In this document: positions 5,985 through 44,506 of the stretch, in pieces
Position numbering within the stretch: position 1 is the first letter of the stretch
Layout: each line of letters begins with the position of its first letter
Assembly (NCBI GenBank): GCA_028583605.1
Contig: CM053331.1
Coordinates: 14,244,857-14,308,856 of the forward strand
From: Dastarcus helophoroides
Lineage: Eukaryota > Arthropoda > Insecta > Coleoptera > Bothrideridae
DNA: 64,000 bases
Reading direction: 5' to 3'
The notes under the pieces: generated by a model
The model's database searches: none
Told to the model about the DNA's origin: nothing
Seen by the model: the letters and a program-made list of their open reading frames with translations, nothing else
Translations under genes and position numbers: made by a program

Positions 5985-7251
5985 CGAGGGTTGCCTTCTA
6001 TGTTTCGGGATTTGGCAACCCTAGTGTTGCAATCTGGCAACTGACAGCTGTATCGTAAAGTTGGACATTTTTGAGGTTATACGTACTCAGAACGTTTTGA
6101 CAGAGGAGCGCTACTTCTGTTTACAGTAACTTAAAAGATTCATCTCAGCCCAAAAATGGAATTAAATCGTGAACATTTTCGTGCGATTATTTTTTACAAC
6201 TTTCGACGTGGATTAACTCAGCAACAGTGCATGGATGAACTTAATTCAATTTTTGGCAATAAAGCTCCATCAAGGACCAGTGTTTATCGATGGTATGGTG
6301 AATTCAATCGTGGTCATAGTTCACTCCAAGACGAATTTCGTGAAGGTCATCCAAAATCAGTTGTTGTTCCGAAAACCATTGATGCTGTGCGCGAACTGAT
6401 ATTGCAAGATCGTCATGTGACCTATCGTGAGAATGAGACAACCTTAGGCATTAGTGGGACCAGCATACATTCAATATTGCATAAACATTTGACCGTCAAC
6501 AAAATTTGTTCGCGTTGAATTCCACACAATTTGTCAATCGCTCAAAAAAAGGCTCGTGTCGATTGGTCGAAAGAAATGCTCAAAAAATACAATCGCGGTG
6601 CTTCCAAACACGTCTATGACATCGCGACAGGTGATGAATCGTGGATTTAGGCGTATGAGCCCGAAAGTAAACAGCAGTCGACTGTATGGATGTTTCAAGA
6701 TGAGCCAAATCCAACAAAAGTTGTTCGCGCACAAAGCATTTCCAAGCAAATGGTCGCCTGTTTTTTCGGAAAAACTTGACAGTCGCAACCGTACCACTAG
6801 AACAACGCAGAATAGTCAATTCTGCGTGGTACACAACCATTTGTTTGCCAGTTATCTTCCAAGAAATCAAGAAAACCAACCGCCGAAGACGGATCACTCT
6901 TCACCACGACAATGCGAGCTCTCACACATCGGCTCAAACAACTGCATTTTTGAGCATCCATCCGCTGTATAGTCCTGACTTGGCACCGAATGACTTCTTT
7001 TTATTCCCGTACGTGAAAAACAAACTGAGAGGTCAACGTTTTTCAACACCTGAAGAAGCGGTTGCTGCATTCAGAATGCATGTTTTGGAGATACCTCAAT
7101 CAGAGTGGCAAAAGTGCTTCAACAATTAATTCAAACGCATGCAAAAGTATATAGATCTTCATGGGGAATATTTTGAAAAACAATAAAGTGATTTTCCATA
7201 GTAAATATTTGTTTTTATTCTCTAATCCCGAAATATAAAAGGCAACCCTCG
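5985..7251 (+). mobile_element. Mariner transposon with both ends, 1,267 bp
   Basis: 28-bp terminal inverted repeats: 5985-6012 (CGAGGGTTGCCTTCTATGTT...) and the reverse complement at 7224-7251, differing at a few positions. TA duplications lie at 5983-5984 and 7252-7253. Length and the single intronless transposase gene are as expected for mariner. It lies inside intron 1-distal sequence of the glutamate receptor gene, on the opposite strand. Confidence 0.9.
6156..7129 (+). pseudogene. Mariner transposase, inactivated
   Basis: Starts MELNREHFRAII with the N-terminal paired helix-turn-helix region, then the WVPHNL-equivalent linker and the DD34D catalytic domain. Breaks seen: an in-frame TGA at 6516-6518 where the family has Trp; a TAG at 6648-6650 just after the first catalytic Asp (GDESWI); and a frameshift near 6775, after which the reading continues in the 6776 frame (VATVPLEQRR, HHDNASSH, SPDLAPNDFF). 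A TAA at 7127-7129 falls about 18 codons before the natural end. The spacing between the second and third catalytic Asp is 27 instead of 34 residues, so 21 bp are deleted in frame. It cannot encode an active enzyme. Confidence 0.9.
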
Positions 7252-15660: not shown

Positions 15661-18583
15661 ATATATCGATTTAAACTTATAAAACTTGAAAAAATATTGA
15701 AATTTATACCGGGTGTTTTTTTTAGTTGGGAGGTTACCTTTATATGGAGTCTCACTTATTATAAATGCAAAATGATTTTGTCGATATGGCTAATCGGAGC
15801 TAAACTACCTTTCAAAAATATTTCAACTTCCTCCAACTTTCGGTTATACCAGAAGTAGACATTAACTTTCTTATTTTAAATAGCAACCCCCAAATTTTAT
15901 ATTTTATTTGGATTCTACGTAGAAAAATAAGGTGAGTTTATGTATACATGTTTATTGCTATCTTTGGTAGTTTTTAAGATATTTCAATTTTTCGAAAAAA
16001 ACTGACAGAAAAGAGGGTTACTTTGACTCTTTGCATCTTTTTTATTATTTACAATAAAAACATGAAATTTGGGTTGAAGTCATGGAATATTATGGAGACT
16101 ATAATAACGTAATCAAGATTTACATTTATTACACAGGGTGATGGAAATTCTGTGATCTTTATTGTTTTCGTTTTATTCAAAAAAACTCTGTTTTTTAAAT
16201 GGGAACTATGTCTTTTAAACATTTTTGAATTCCTTAGGTAAAAAGAAGAAAAAAGTTATATGACTAATTTTTAAAAATTCTGCACCGTTACAGAGATATA
16301 ATGCAAAATAAAAAAAATATATATATCTTTTTTTTTCTAGTAGCAACTTGGTAGTAGACAACAAAATTTTCAAACAAAAAGATAACCACAAGGCCTAAAA
16401 ATGTTAGCCTAAATAACATTTAAAAGATAAACGCACAAAACGAATAAGTTTTTGGCTAATTGTTAGAATACTTATTGAAAAATGTTTAGGGAGCCACGAA
16501 TGTAAGTTTCGTAAAAATGGTTTGTTAAACAGACTTCTTTTTGGAGTAATGAAAATCAACAACAAATGTTCAAGAAAATTCGTCCTTTAACTGTTATGCT
16601 GTTAGATTAGAACTAAGGATTTTTAAGCGTCAAATTTTACAATAAAAATTAAAATGGAAATTTTTTAGTGATTTTTTTACAACTACTGCATGACAAGCAT
16701 ATTGCTAGGAACAATCGAATGTGCTTAAAAACATTATTCAATTCAAAATCTTAAAATATGCCTTTAAATGTATTGAAACAGAAGATCGCCCCTGTTGTTC
16801 TTGATGTAAATTTTTTGTCAATTATTTTTGTTTCCTATTAATTATTATGGTTAATTCTTTAAGCTTTTATTGCCTACAGTTAATTTCCTACTTGAACAAA
16901 AAAGATATGTTTGATTCTTTTTATTTTGAGAATTATGTAAAATACCTCTGTAGTGGTACAAAATTTTAAAAAATAAGTAAAATAACTTTTTTCTTCTTTT
17001 TATGTGAAGAATCCAAAAATGATTAAAAATCATATAGTTCCCATTTAAGAAAACAGAGTATATTACGGTAAAAAATCTCGAACTTTTCAAGAAAAAATTA
17101 AATATTTGAATTCCTAATTAAACGGCCCCAAATTTTAAGACCTAATAACAAAATTACAAAAAAGACACCATTATTTGTACCAGGCAAAAATTTTTCTCCA
17201 AATTTTTAGTTTTGAATCCGGAATTATTTTTCAAAAATAGAAAAGTAAAAATGTTAAAAATGAGGCGAAATTTATAAAACAAATTTAGTTTTGACTTGAG
17301 GTTTCGAGAAGAGAGTTGAAATAAAAAGAATGGGCTCGACATTTTCACGAATTTTAGATTATAAAGGAAAAATGTTTGAAGTGAATTTAATATTGAAAGT
17401 AGAAATTTCGAGAAAAAAATTAAAGTTTTAAAAATATTCATAAAATGTAACAACTTTCTAAGTTATCGAAAATAAAATTCACGACGAAAGTCGAACCTTT
17501 TTAAACTTTAACAATTAAGGTTATCACAAGATAATCCAAATATTCCAGTTTGAAGGAAACATTTGGAAACAAAGTAGCCTTTAAAGCTACATTCGAAATT
17601 TCACGCCGAGTTTAGGCAGAAATAAAAAAAGTCCAATTTTTAGAAAAAAAGTCGTACCTTGCTGTATACCTGCAGAATTTTGGGAAAAATATTCCAAATT
17701 TTAGGACAAAATCTACAAAAATACTGCAAATGGGCGGAAAAAATCTCGATAGCATGAAAAATGAACATTATAAATATCATGTTGGAAGCGTAAAAATGTT
17801 CGAATTAAATTTTGATTAAAAAAAAACAATATTTCTAGTTTAATGTACAAATATCAAAAAAAAGCTTAAAAATTGGTAAAGAAAAATAAAACAAAATCAA
17901 AAAAAAATTACAAAAGCTTCTAAATTGATCGGTTTAAGGATTTAGAAGTTATCAAGAGTAAACGTCAAATGACCTTCCACTATAATGAAAATCATAATTG
18001 TGACTTTGGATTTTACGGTATTTTTTTGGGTAAATATTAGGCTTTATTTTCATGCATATGTTGTGTGCTAAATTTTTTTCCAAAGGCTGCAAAAACCATC
18101 TTTACACAAATATTTTCCAAACAATCATCCTTCCGCAAAAATAATTATTGCAAAATATGGAGGTCTAAACTAAGGAGGTATTTTTAAGGAAGTTATTTTT
18201 TTTTAGGAACCTTATTAAAATTTTACAGGTATCTTTAAAGAACGAAACAACTTCTTCAAAAACACAATAAAACCCTATCGAGACTTTAAAAAATAAAGTT
18301 GGTTCTCCTAACAATGCCATTTGAGGGGAACAATTAAATCTAAGAACTTTTGTTAAATTATTTTTCATAATAACGAATATTTCGGTAAGTACAAGCAACT
18401 TTCCATACTTTTTCCTTATGTACACAGGGTGACAATTTAAAAAGTAGCAATCAGGAATATTTCTTCGAACAAACCTCACCCCAACTTATTTTGTTTAAAT
18501 AAGAACCCACCTCGTGTGGCACATCGTTGGAAAGGTCATTGCTTTTGCTTTAAAGTTCTACAGCAAAATCTTAAATCCTAGGA
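15661..18583. other. AT-rich repeat graveyard with ACAGGGTG-type termini
   Basis: No gene. GGGTG or ACAGGGTG motifs near 15704, 16134 and 18423 resemble the element ends at 14053, 22224, 22768, 37747 and 60339, so several eroded members of such families probably lie here. 16960-17900 is cryptically simple AAAATTT/GAAATTT sequence. Confidence 0.45.
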
Positions 18584-18754
18584 TAAACGATTGAAATACA
18601 AATCTTGTCCACTAAAACCAAGAAAAATTAAAAAACAACAGAGGTTGCAACTTCTGTTCTGTTTTTTAATCTGTCTTGGTTTCAGGGGACAAGATTTGTA
18701 TTTCAATTTTTAAAGATAACCAAGGACTAGTCCGTCCCACCAAAATTATGGCTT
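18584..18754. mobile_element. Short palindromic element, copy 1 (core lost)
   Basis: Inverted arms TTGAAATACAAATCTTGTCC (18591-18610) and GGACAAGATTTGTATTTCAA (18687-18706), followed by the family's one-sided tail AAGATAACCAAGGACTAGTCC. Bounded by a 7-bp repeat CCTAGGA (18577-18583 and 18755-18761), probably the target duplication. Compared with the copies at 23000 and 29607, the centre holding the ribozyme-like core is deleted. Confidence 0.6.
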
Positions 18755-19011
18755 CCTAGGACTAGTTTCTGAAATATCGATGTTTAAAATAAGCAATATT
18801 TTAGAAAACTAATAATTTTGATTAGGTCTTAGACTAAGAATTCTGTCATAAGGTTTTTAAATATACATCGGGGAAACCACAGAATGTGTTTTTTGACTCA
18901 CCACCCCTCATATATAAAAAAATAAGTTGGGGCATAACCCCCTAAGGGGTAAGGCTGGGTAAGTGAAAAAGTACCTTACTTTGATTCCTTGTCCAATGCC
19001 CGGATATGTAT

Positions 19012-22960: not shown

Positions 22961-22999
22961 CACGTAGATTTAACTTAAATTATTATTATAATGGTTACT

Positions 23000-23209
23000 A
23001 AAATTGAAACACAGAACTTGTCCCCTGAAACCAAGAAAAATTAAAAAACACAACAAAGGTTGCTCTAACGCGTTTCGACGGCCAAGCTGTCATCTTCAGA
23101 GAGAAACTACTACTACTTTCTTGTGTTTTTTAATTTTGCTTGGTTTCAGGGGACAAGTTCTGTGTTTCAATTTTTGAAGATAACCAAGGACCAGTCCGTT
23201 CCATCAAAA
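23000..23209. mobile_element. Short palindromic ribozyme-bearing element, copy 2
   Basis: 210 bp with perfect 11-bp flanking duplications TAATGGTTACT (22989-22999, 23210-23220). Arms CAGAACTTGTCCCCTGAAAC and GTTTCAGGGGACAAGTTCTG are inverted copies. The one-sided tail AAGATAACCAAGGACCAGTC follows the right arm. The left arm retains the hammerhead-like core; the right arm has lost it. Related to 18584-18754 and 29607-29854. Variable-length duplications with no TA or fixed 8-bp site argue for target-primed insertion (Penelope/retro type) rather than a DNA transposon. Confidence 0.75.
23059..23107 (-). ncRNA. Candidate type-I hammerhead ribozyme (palindromic family)
   Basis: On the minus strand: stem I 5' strand GTTTCTCT; core CTGAAGA; a T; stem II GACAG-CTTGG-CCGTC (one A-C mismatch); GAAA; self-complementary ACGCGT forming stem III in a dimer, ending in GTT as the cleavage triplet; then stem I 3' strand AGAGCAAC, which pairs with the 5' strand as 4 bp, one mismatch and 3 bp. 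All invariant core bases are present. GTT instead of GTC at the cleavage site would be slower. Not folded computationally. Confidence 0.6.
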
Positions 23210-23220
23210 TAATGGTTACT

Positions 23221-27751: not shown

Positions 27752-28110
27752 AAAGTAGTACCAGCCAATCGCAGTATTTGCAATAATTTAAGTAATGCTA
27801 AAGATAAATTAGACAAGCTTCAGAATTCGGGAATTAACCAAATAAGCTGCAACAATTATAATTTATCATATACAGGACAGAGCAAGAGATTCCTTAAAAC
27901 TAGATTTAAAAAACATATAGGTCATTTTAGATACAATAGAGAAGAAAAATTAAGTGTCACCCAACATATGATAAGTACACGGGACATAACATTGAAAATT
28001 TAAAGTTGTTAAGATCGGTTTCAAATAACAGAGAACTTGATGCATATACAACAATTTACACCCACCAGAGGCCAGATACACTTAAAGAAGGTACCATTCG
28101 CGGCCTCCTG
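27752..28110 (+). pseudogene. Penelope-like element: GIY-YIG endonuclease relic
   Basis: The reading KDKLDKLQNSGINQISCNN, then YTGQSKRFLKTRFKKHI, then EEKLSVTQHM is the GIY-YIG endonuclease found at the C-terminus of Penelope-like reverse transcriptases (consensus ...SGVY-I-C---C---YIGQT-R-F-TR-KEH...). The GIY tyrosine and one of the paired cysteines are replaced. A one-base frameshift near 27975 moves the continuation (TGHNIENLKLLRSVSNNREL, then DAYTTIYTHQ) to another frame. The reverse transcriptase upstream is absent. Dead fragment. Confidence 0.7.
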
Positions 28111-29595: not shown

Positions 29596-29606
29596 ATGAT
29601 AGTATT

Positions 29607-29854
29607 GAGATACAGAACTTGTTCCCTGAAACCAAGAAAGATTAAAAAACACAACAAAGGTTGCTCTAACGCGTTTCGACAGCCAAGCTGTCATCTTCAG
29701 AGAGAAACTGTTTCTCCCTAAAGATGACAGCTTGGCTGTCGAAACGCGTTAGAGCAACCTTTGTTGTGTTTTTTAATGTTTCTTAGTTTCAGGAGACAAG
29801 TTCTGTATTTCAATTTTTGATGATAACCAAGGACCAGTCCGTTCCATCAAACTT
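29607..29854. mobile_element. Short palindromic ribozyme-bearing element, copy 3
   Basis: 248 bp with perfect 11-bp duplications ATGATAGTATT (29596-29606, 29855-29865). A near-perfect palindrome centred at about 29709: ACAGAACTTGTTCCCTGAAA ... TTTCAGGAGACAAGTTCTGT. Both arms keep the hammerhead-like segment, on opposite strands. The asymmetric tail GATAACCAAGGACCAGTCCG follows the right arm, as in the other two copies. No coding capacity; an open frame across it is an artefact. Confidence 0.8.
29660..29708 (-). ncRNA. Candidate type-I hammerhead ribozyme (palindromic family, best copy)
   Basis: Minus strand: GTTTCTCT, CTGAAGA, T, stem II GACAG-CTTGG-CTGTC (five perfect pairs), GAAA, CGCGTT, AGAGCAAC. 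Stem I pairs GTTTCTCT with AGAGCAAC (seven pairs, one mismatch). Stem III is the self-complementary ACGCGT, as expected for minimal hammerheads that act as dimers. The mirror copy on the plus strand (29710-29758) reads CTAAAGA in place of CTGAAGA; it has lost an invariant G and is probably inactive. Confidence 0.62.
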
Positions 29855-43330: not shown

Positions 43331-43483
43331 ATCTTTATAAAATAAGAATTTTCTGTTTGCCCCAAGATATAAAATAATTAATATTAAATAAATAATAAAT
43401 ATGATAACGAAGGCTTCCACGGCCAGAGTCAGTACAGGATATACTTCTTCCGGGATTGGACCGTGTCAAAGAACTACTAAAAG

Positions 43484-43528
43484 TGTTCGACGTTTCGCCC
43501 ACCATCGTAGGGGGCTTCTTCAGGAACA
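43484..43528 (-). ncRNA. Candidate type-I hammerhead ribozyme, sense pLTR
   Basis: Minus strand: stem I TGTTC; core CTGAAGA; A; stem II GCCC...GGGC closing an 11-base loop; GAAA; self-complementary ACGT giving a minimal stem III; cleavage triplet GTC; stem I return GAACA (five perfect pairs). All invariant positions of the hammerhead core are present. Minimal type-I hammerheads are documented in Penelope-like pseudo-LTRs, and the neighbouring tail supports that context. Confidence 0.72.
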
Positions 43529-43597
43529 AGGAAAGAAAAATAGATGAAATGAGGGAATATGCAAAAAAGAAAAATAAAAATAAAAGGCCAATTTTAA

Positions 43598-43830
43598 AAC
43601 ATCAGAGCACGGTAACTCAGTATGTCCACCATACCAGAGGCGAAACTCTTCTGAATTGAAAATTGGTACAAAGGATAAGAAAGTTTAGACAGAAGAGCAC
43701 GGTAACTCAGTATGTCCACCATACCAGAGGCGAAACTCTTCTGAATTGAAACTTGGTACAAAAGAAAGTTTAGGCAGAAGAGCACGGTAACTCAGTATGT
43801 CCACCATACCAAAGGCGAAACTCTTCTGAC
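43598..43830 (+). repeat. Three tandem ~85-bp units
   Basis: Units start at about 43604, 43695 and 43779 with AGAGCACGGTAACTCAGTAT and contain CCACCATACCAGAGGCGAAA, CTCTTCTGAATTGAAA. Spacings are 91 and 84 bp, the third unit diverging after CTCTTCTGA. The first overlaps the end of the pseudo-LTR arm. They lie between the coding tail and the sense arm. Confidence 0.75.
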
Positions 43831-43875
43831 AGGAAAGAGGGAAAGGGAAACTTTATATACCACGCGTCTGTGCGA

Positions 43876-44064
43876 TCACTTCCGAAGATTTCCTATGGTT
43901 GGTTTCCAGGTGGAGGAAAACATGTAACCTTCGTCTCTGTTGATGTTATTGGGGAATTTTTGGATTTCGATGGCCTCGCCTATCTTCCTATTATAGTAAT
44001 TGGGAATATTGGATATAATTGAAATATTATCGAAGAGAATCTTATGTCCGGTCTCATGTTGATG
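43876..44064 (-). pseudogene. C-terminal tail of a Penelope-like reverse transcriptase/endonuclease
   Basis: 63 open codons to TGA (43876-43878): HQHETGHKILFDN, NYYNRKIGEAIEIQKFPNNI, NRDEGYMFSSTWKPTIGNLR. EAIEI-K-PNN-NR--GY--S-TW-P is the hallmark tail following the GIY-YIG domain of Penelope-like elements. The rest of the protein is absent: the insertion is truncated at about 44064, where the inverted arm begins. Confidence 0.75.
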
Positions 44065-44195
44065 TCAATTCAGAAGAGTTTCGCCTCTGGTATGGTGGAC
44101 ATACTGAGTTACCGTGCTCTGATGTTTTAAAATTGGCCTTTTATTTTTATTTTTCTTTTTTGCATATTCCCTCATTTCATCTATTTTTCTTTCCT

Positions 44196-44240
44196 TGTTC
44201 CTGAAGAAGCCCCCTACGATGGTGGGCGAAACGTCGAACA
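44196..44240 (+). ncRNA. Candidate type-I hammerhead ribozyme, inverted pLTR
   Basis: Mirror copy of 43484-43528, same bases, on the plus strand (TGTTC, CTGAAGA, GCCC/GGGC stem, GAAACGTC, GAACA). Confidence 0.72.
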
Positions 44241-44506
44241 CTTTTAGTAGTTCTTTGACACGGTCCAATCCCGGAAGAAGTATATCCTGTACTAAATAAT
44301 AAATAAGTGTGAAAATTCAGTTTATATTTTTGATGGTGCTAATTCTATCGTGATGCGATGCATCGATTTTTCAAGCATTGTTTATAAACTGAACGATGTA
44401 TCGATATTTGTTATGCTTTACCATCCATGTTAAGACATCGATGTTTATAAACGATACATCGATGTTTTCAAAACATCGAACTATCGTTTGCATCCCTATG
44501 AAATGG

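What the first reader, a model, noticed from the sequence alone, without database searches (positions are those of the whole stretch)
29607..29854. Small palindromic retroelement family carrying a hammerhead-like ribozyme in each arm
Three copies (18584-18754, 23000-23209, 29607-29854) share arms, an asymmetric tail, and 7- to 11-bp flanking duplications that differ in sequence between copies, so they moved independently. The arm contains, in correct order, CTGAAGA, a 5-bp stem II, GAAA, a self-complementary ACGCGT and a matching stem I. The palindromic layout puts one ribozyme on each strand, so either transcript could self-cleave. Variable-length target duplications argue against a DNA-transposon MITE. 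I do not know this family as described; the closest concept is a non-autonomous Penelope or retrozyme-like element. Seen: structure and duplications. Inferred: ribozyme activity and mobilisation route.
Basis: partly seen in the sequence, partly recalled or inferred. Interest (0 to 1): 0.88.

Follow-up and report, generated by a model that had tools for sequence, protein, structure and literature searches.

The report
Ribozyme-marked double-ended Penelope retroelement insertions
The palindromes are not a transposon family of their own but two-ended insertions of the first ~143 bases of a jumping gene's (Penelope-like) RNA in an insect-like genome, and the points where their two halves meet mark both where that RNA seems to start and where its built-in ribozyme appears to cut it.

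Summary
The three palindromes and their 8-, 12- and 11-bp flanking duplications are real. They are not an independent family. Each arm is 5' leader of an abundant Penelope-like element (PLE): RT and GIY-YIG domains, 785-codon ORF, TATATAA 31 nt upstream of the leader start. The right arm ends in a ~33-nt 'tail', the left arm lacks it, as expected from the two internal RT start sites reported for Anolis Poseidon. Best explanation: both strands of a staggered break prime reverse transcription on PLE RNA, and the two cDNAs are joined where they run out. Inserts in which neither arm contains the other argue against simple copy-back. Genome-wide, exact palindromes are centred at the leader start (62 places) and at the predicted hammerhead cut (63), with 2, 5 and 1 in the three bins counted between. 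At the cut, 20 of 50 listed junctions have 0-1 nt filler, against 0 of 50 and 0 of 21 in two downstream bins. I read this as a genomic record of hammerhead cleavage (inferred; no RNA seen). Rfam models do not hit.

The parts
29596..29606 (.). Copy 3 target-site duplication, left (11 bp)
29607..29709 (-). Copy 3, left arm: antisense cDNA of the leader from about +103 to +1, no tail; intact hammerhead core on the minus strand (29700-29668)
29710..29851 (+). Copy 3, right arm: leader +2 to +143 including the tail; hammerhead on the plus strand with broken core (CTAAAGA from 29718)
29819..29851 (+). Tail between the two inferred RT start sites; holds GGAC-CA-GTCC
   Evidence: compare PMC11167929
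29855..29865 (.). Copy 3 target-site duplication, right
22988..22999 (.). Copy 2 target-site duplication, left (12 bp)
23000..23108 (-). Copy 2, left arm: leader about +109 to +1, hammerhead with one stem II mismatch
23109..23115 (.). Copy 2 filler between the arms
23116..23208 (+). Copy 2, right arm: leader from about +51 to +143 with tail 23176-23208; stops short while the left arm runs to +1
23209..23220 (.). Copy 2 target-site duplication, right
18576..18583 (.). Copy 1 target-site duplication, left (8 bp)
18590..18648 (-). Copy 1, left arm: leader about +106 to +46, no hammerhead core
18647..18753 (+). Copy 1, right arm: leader from about +46; right end about 9 bases beyond the usual one
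18754..18761 (.). Copy 1 target-site duplication, right
43390..44305 (.). Independent second PLE family, similar architecture: duplication AAATAATAAATA (43390-43401/44294-44305), 229-bp identical inverted arms 43431-43659 and 44065-44293, a hammerhead-like motif in each (minus 43523-43484, plus 44201-44240), extra tail-like bases on the left

Best explanation
The palindromes are products of two-sided target-primed reverse transcription by a Penelope-like element. Its RNA starts at AGTTTC (+1), carries a minimal type I hammerhead at +2 to +50 (cut 42|43), two RT initiation sites near +105-118 and +143, and the main AUG at +147. The enzyme makes a staggered break. Both 3' ends prime antisense cDNA, one at each site, often perhaps on the same RNA. 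Both cDNAs run towards the RNA 5' end and are joined there with little or no filler. If the RNA is intact they meet at +1; if the hammerhead has cut it they meet at +43. Full-length or broken RNA gives longer palindromes. Shown: element identity, arm anatomy, duplications, arm asymmetry, centre positions. Inferred: order of steps, a shared RNA, the ribozyme as cause of the +43 ends, and +1 as transcription start.
For: PLE identity: the L140 reading frame has RVT_1 (4.9e-13) and GIY-YIG (4.2e-05) and insect relatives; main AUG at +147, 785 codons. Leader start: 28 of 90 right arms end exactly at +1; TATATAA 31 nt upstream in long copies. Left arms start at +105..+118 in 33 of 41; right arms carry the tail by selection. 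Shared flank words >=9 bp in 34 of 41 two-armed inserts. Inserts in which neither arm contains the other (right arm alone has the tail, left arm reaches further 5'): window copy 2 (left to +1, right from +51), L081 (left to -140, right to -123), L086/L140 (left to -215, right to -40), and 12 of 41 two-armed inserts of the second sample (left to +6 or further, right from +16..+52), 6 of the 12 with 1-4 nt filler. 3-kb palindromes L138 and L139 with duplications, left start at site 1 and right tail. Palindrome centres, genome-wide exact counts: +1 62, +19 2, +27 5, +35 1, +43 63, +51 78, +75 21. Filler 0-1 nt: 20 of 50 listed at +43, 0 of 50 listed at +51, 0 of 21 at +75 (counted by hand). CpG loss does not explain the low +35: 21 of 25 left arms keep the +35 word, 20 of 25 the +43 word. 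The 12 loci checked (11 inserts; L151/L152 are one) with an arm ending at +41..+49 all have shared flank words of 11-19 bp. Two old copies show a stem II pair changed on both sides, GACAG/CTGTC to GATAG/CTATC (L013, L059). Published in vitro work on the Anolis PLE: both strands cut and extended, two adjacent internal RT starts, protein-assisted hammerhead (PMC11167929).
Against: No RNA was seen. In the Anolis work hammerhead mutants did not affect insertion in vitro and no cut ends were found in RNA-seq (PMC11167929). Rfam hammerhead models miss the motif, and there is one unpaired U before stem II. RNAfold prefers a stem I register shifted by 2 nt. The +51 bin has 78 places, more than +43; those listed have 4-8 nt gaps holding parts of +43..+50. 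The +75 bin has 21. The uniform-null test of right ends at +41..+44 is modest (8 of 33, p 0.006). L138 is a perfect palindrome (arms of 1501 bp differ nowhere but at the centre base), and 7 loci share non-reference bases between arms, which copy-back would also give. Central deletions of palindromes could mimic unequal arms. L150 and L164 have one arm ending at +1..+3 and the other at +42..+43, so the two arms need not come from one intact RNA. Seven copies found with the centre query (L017, L022, L023, L027, L028, L030, L033) keep a 10-12 nt inverted piece of the leader start at the centre beside a shortened or missing arm, which I do not explain. No duplication was found for L086, whose stretch does not reach the 3' end of that insert.
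Confidence: 0.78

Rival explanations
1. Copy-back (self-priming): a single cDNA folds back at its 3' end and copies itself, giving the inverted arm; unequal arms arise by later central deletion. Self-priming, on an antisense template, was proposed for rotifer Penelope palindromes (PMC3846280).
For: Perfect 3-kb palindrome L138; perfect 1-nt centres among the copies found with the centre query; short inverted pieces of the leader start at the centre of seven copies; shared non-reference bases in both arms at 7 loci.
Against: Left ends fixed at +105..+118 in 33 of 41 rather than running on through the tail; inserts in which neither arm contains the other (window copy 2, L081, L086/L140 and 12 of 41 in the second sample); left arms that stop early while the right runs full (L077, L099, L109, L129); fillers between full arms (L062, L102).
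Confidence: 0.12
2. A master palindromic SINE-like or retrozyme-like element that is transcribed and copied as a palindrome.
For: 40 places with the near-identical centre in the first search, 5'-shortened forms, target duplications.
Against: Junctions differ from copy to copy in the sample not chosen for the centre; one-armed leaders and ORF-bearing copies share the same ends; the TATA-bearing stretch lies upstream and is absent from the short inserts.
Confidence: 0.06
3. The +43 ends come from a reverse-transcriptase stop, a nuclease or an alternative transcription start, not from the hammerhead.
For: No RNA data; 6 of 33 truncated right arms end at +49..+52, as expected of a stop at the base of stem I.
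Against: A structural stop is expected near +51, not at +43; stem II at +18..+32 causes no pile-up (+27: 5, +35: 1). No TATA-like sequence at the right distance, by eye. Single extra bases are C/G in 13 of 14 independent places at +1 but 3 of 9 at +43 (hand counts from the listed places; Fisher p 0.005), as if +1 ends were capped and +43 ends not (post hoc).
Confidence: 0.25
4. Foldback DNA transposon or MITE.
For: Inverted arms, flanking duplications.
Against: Duplication length varies; ends vary; 5'-shortened copies with constant 3' end; arms match a PLE leader.
Confidence: 0.01

Closest known systems
Penelope-like elements with GIY-YIG endonuclease (Penelope/Poseidon type)
   Same: RT + GIY-YIG, pseudo-LTR, inverted copies, tail of ~30-40 bp, short variable duplications, minimal hammerhead in the leader.
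   Different: Many leader-only two-armed inserts, and palindromes centred on the predicted ribozyme cut; I found no such report in the papers my searches returned.
Poseidon of Anolis carolinensis, PAc (PMC11167929)
   Same: Two internal RT starts, both target strands extended, hammerhead cut ~26 nt after an AUG at stem II.
   Different: There the result is in vitro and cut RNA was not found in RNA-seq. Here the AUG at stem II opens only a 57-codon frame; the main ORF starts at +147.
Adineta vaga Pen families (PMC3846280)
   Same: Inverted pLTR 37 bp shorter than the direct ones, 31-bp tail on one, palindromic junctions, duplications of 8-10 bp.
   Different: Explained there by self-priming on an antisense template.
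Animal retrozymes (PMC7229834)
   Same: Small non-autonomous repeats with type I hammerheads.
   Different: Retrozymes are direct tandem repeats giving circular RNA; here the arms are head to head and derive from a PLE leader.

Membership tests
Penelope-like element (source of the arms) | RT and GIY-YIG in one ORF | tested here: met
Penelope-like element (source of the arms) | Pseudo-LTR and tail of ~30-40 bp | tested here: met
   L140 has the leader at both ends of the ORF; tail of 33 nt
Penelope-like element (source of the arms) | Phylogenetic place among PLE clades | not tested
   only a homology search
Hammerhead ribozyme, minimal type I | Core CUGANGA...GAAA with stems I-III in order | tested here: met
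   read from sequence; one unpaired U before stem II
Hammerhead ribozyme, minimal type I | Covariance-model match | tested here: not met
Hammerhead ribozyme, minimal type I | Compensatory changes | tested here: inconclusive
   one stem II pair changed on both sides in two old copies, L013 and L059
Hammerhead ribozyme, minimal type I | Self-cleavage | not testable with these tools
   only indirect: insert ends at the predicted cut
Animal retrozyme | Direct tandem repeats with hammerheads giving circular RNA | tested here: not met
   arms of the window copies are inverted; circular RNA not testable
MITE / foldback DNA transposon | Constant target-duplication length and fixed ends | tested here: not met
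SINE | Own internal (pol III) promoter | not tested
   no promoter search was made

The most novel reading that the evidence does not exclude
Penelope-like elements insert by two reverse transcriptases working from both sides of one break, and the centres of the resulting palindromes are a genome-wide in vivo record of hammerhead cleavage: capped templates meet at the transcription start, ribozyme-cut templates meet at the cut. A second, unrelated PLE family in the same genome shows palindromes centred on its own predicted cut (33 places; no control counts, and a TCGA microhomology could contribute).
Probability: 0.55. Interest if true: 0.86.

Novelty: new variant of a known kind. Interest (0 to 1): 0.72.

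Why it matters
[quoted passage not shown] These inserts offer hundreds of natural end-points in one genome that bear on both. They suggest that the ribozyme does cut in the animal and that cut RNA still serves as template, and that the classical inverted-pLTR structure comes from priming on both strands. Both claims can be tested with RNA ends and with an existing in vitro system.

Tried and rejected
MITE and foldback readings (variable duplications, PLE identity). A palindromic SINE with a master copy (junctions differ). I first took the AUG at +16 as the ORF start; the main ORF starts at +147 in another frame. I first read shortened left arms as random truncation of a palindromic RNA; three of them (L019, L048, L092) start at one U-run near +70..+77, so other priming sites are as likely. 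Rfam miRNA hits on the whole palindrome look like generic long-hairpin matches. MFE folding of the leader does not test a hammerhead.

Not done: no PLE tree, no promoter test, no species name for the genome (unnamed assembly), no control counts for the second family, no structure prediction, no count at +11 or +59.

Full report
What is there. The three window inserts share arms of up to ~105 bp and an asymmetric tail of 33 nt. They lie between duplications of 8, 12 and 11 bp. The window is G000:C7:14244857-14308856 of an unnamed 539-Mb assembly. The arms are the leader of a Penelope-like element. Locus L140 holds a long copy: leader, ORF with RVT_1 and GIY-YIG, and a second leader at the 3' end. 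The named relatives among the best hits are insect proteins: Molorchus, Aedes, Sitodiplosis and others. Numbering from AGTTTC as +1, long copies carry TATATAA 31 nt upstream. The AUG at +16 opens 57 codons; the main ORF starts at +147 and has 785 codons.

Two arms, two ends. One search scored 150 places (of 68,832 first-look candidates) and I read 90 of them (L048-L137). They were chosen for an intact right arm, not for the left. Of 90, 41 have a left arm next to the right arm; 49 have a right arm ending between -5 and +15, and 28 of the 90 end exactly at +1; 33 of the 49 are two-armed and 16 one-armed. Left arms start at +105..+118 in 33 of 41. The longest shared word between flanks is 9 bp or more in 34 of 41 two-armed copies; of flanks re-paired at random 3.4% reach 9. 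The seven below 9 are L068, L086, L093, L098, L100, L106 and L110. In the one-armed class 5 of 16 reach 9.

Why two-sided priming. For the Anolis element, Frangieh et al. report in vitro cutting and extension of both strands and RT starts at two adjacent internal sites, the stretch between them being the genomic tail (PMC11167929; parts 1 and 2 of 4 read). Here the left arm starts at the upstream site and the right arm at the downstream one. In L081 and L086 the left arm reaches further 5' than the right, while only the right has the tail; L086 is the 5' part of the long insert in L140, where the left arm ends at -215 and the right at -40. In window copy 2 the left arm runs to +1 but the right starts at +51. 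In the second sample described below, 12 of 41 two-armed inserts have a left arm to +6 or further and a right arm starting at +16..+52; six of the 12 have 1-4 nt filler, the others longer filler, some of it leader-like (L193, whose left match lies elsewhere in the element, is not counted among the 12). Neither arm can be a copy of the other in these, unless a later central deletion removed part. The reverse case, left arm shorter than the right by 14 nt or more, occurs in 11 of the 41 two-armed copies of the first sample. Two long palindromes, L138 (arms 1501 bp, no difference but the centre base) and L139 (1529 bp, 7 mismatched pairs, 6 of them at or next to the centre), also have duplications, a left start at the upstream site and a right tail. 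Seven of the two-armed loci compared share non-reference bases between arms (11 bases), which fits one template RNA but also copy-back. Rotifer Penelope palindromes were explained by self-priming (PMC3846280, passages).

Left unexplained. Seven copies found with the centre query keep 10-12 nt of inverted leader start at the centre while the rest of one arm is shortened or missing (L017, L022, L023, L027, L028, L030, L033). L150 and L164 join an arm ending at +1..+3 to one ending at +42..+43, so the two arms of an insert can have different template ends.

The hammerhead. In sense orientation the leader reads GUUUCUCU-CUGAAGA-U-GACAG...CUGUC-GAAA-CGCGUU|AGAGCAAC: stem I 4+3 bp around a mismatch, stem II 5-6 bp, stem III AC-GC-GU. 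Rfam finds nothing at gathering level in the window and no hammerhead at E<=10 in the stretches given; genome-wide RF00163 gives one place below cut-off, 73 candidates having been scored. PLE hammerheads are described as usually minimal forms lacking helix III (PMC6155905, passages). Old copies L013 and L059 carry GATAG/CTATC in stem II (L006 and L013 are one locus). A second PLE family in the window has unrelated stems and the same core.

Insert ends at the cut. Of 150 places, by hand count 63 were not; I fetched 60. Seven were dropped as repeats of one insert, leaving 53, of which 41 are two-armed. Of 33 right ends between +11 and +56, 8 lie at +41..+44 (binomial p 0.006 under a uniform null) and 6 at +49..+52; in 7 inserts both arms end between +41 and +46. 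Twelve loci with an arm at +41..+49 (L151/L152 being one insert) all have shared flank words of 11-19 bp.

Genome-wide check. For seven positions p, I counted exact palindromes made of 14-nt words starting at p with 0-8 nt between: +1 62, +19 2, +27 5, +35 1, +43 63, +51 78, +75 21. Each palindrome is self-complementary, so forward and reverse counts are the same places; some are tandem duplicates. The tool lists 50 places each for +1, +43 and +51 and all 21 for +75. Filler of 0-1 nt: 24 of 50 at +1, 20 of 50 at +43, 0 of 50 at +51, 0 of 21 at +75 (hand counts). The +51 places listed hold pieces of +43..+50 between the words, mostly one arm ending near +43..+46 or a GC overlap. The low +35 count is not CpG loss: in 25 left arms spanning both, 21 keep the +35 word and 20 the +43 word. 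A blunt join at +43 is not explained by microhomology there (no CTAG in the native sequence). Single extra bases at the junction are C or G in 13 of 14 independent listed places at +1 and 3 of 9 at +43 (hand counts; Fisher p 0.005). That would fit capped ends at +1 and uncapped ends at +43, but the test is post hoc and small.

Second family. The window insert 43390-44305 has identical 229-bp inverted arms, a 12-bp duplication and a stretch in the middle that I recognise by recall as PLE C-terminus-like. Palindromes centred on its predicted cut GUC|GAACA occur at 33 places, 11 of them with no filler, 5 of those 11 being one tandem array. No control positions were counted for this family, and TCGA across the cut is self-complementary, so a 4-nt overlap could give the same junction.

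What it does. The short inserts are most likely dead by-products: they lack the TATA-bearing stretch, and a transcript through them would fold into a hairpin (inference). The live system is the PLE. The proposed cycle is in Best explanation; which steps are shown and which inferred is marked there.

In print. I searched full texts for Penelope with hammerhead, inverted, twin priming, palindrome and template ends. Among the papers these returned I found the PLE papers cited and no report of inserts centred on a hammerhead cut; most I saw only as listings. Cervera and De la Pena 2014 on PLE hammerheads was not held and is known to me by recall only. Most subscription papers are not in the library. 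PMC7229834 was seen as part 1 of 6 plus passages; PMC12910113 as passages.

Verdict. The new point is the set of end positions, which makes both the two-sided mechanism and ribozyme cutting testable.

Noticed in passing
window 43390-44305: Second PLE family, head-to-head insert with a different hammerhead-like motif in each identical arm; 33 genomic palindromes centred on its predicted cut.
   Followed up: partly
window 27803-27967: PLE GIY-YIG endonuclease fragment, 49% identical to the L140 protein over 55 residues.
   Followed up: partly
L138 1979-4981: A 3.0-kb perfect palindrome (arms identical over 1501 bp) with a target duplication; should be checked for assembly artefact.
   Followed up: partly
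L017, L022, L023, L027, L028, L030, L033: A 10-12 nt inverted piece of the leader start stays at the centre although the rest of one arm is shortened or missing.
   Followed up: partly
L019, L048, L092: Left arms of three inserts start at the U-run near +70..+77, perhaps a minor priming site.
   Followed up: no
G000 C10:12942451-12942908: Tandem array, period ~108 bp, of cut-site palindromes of the second PLE family.
   Followed up: no
window 6135-7129: Mariner-like transposase reading frames, by eye from the translation; not searched.
   Followed up: no
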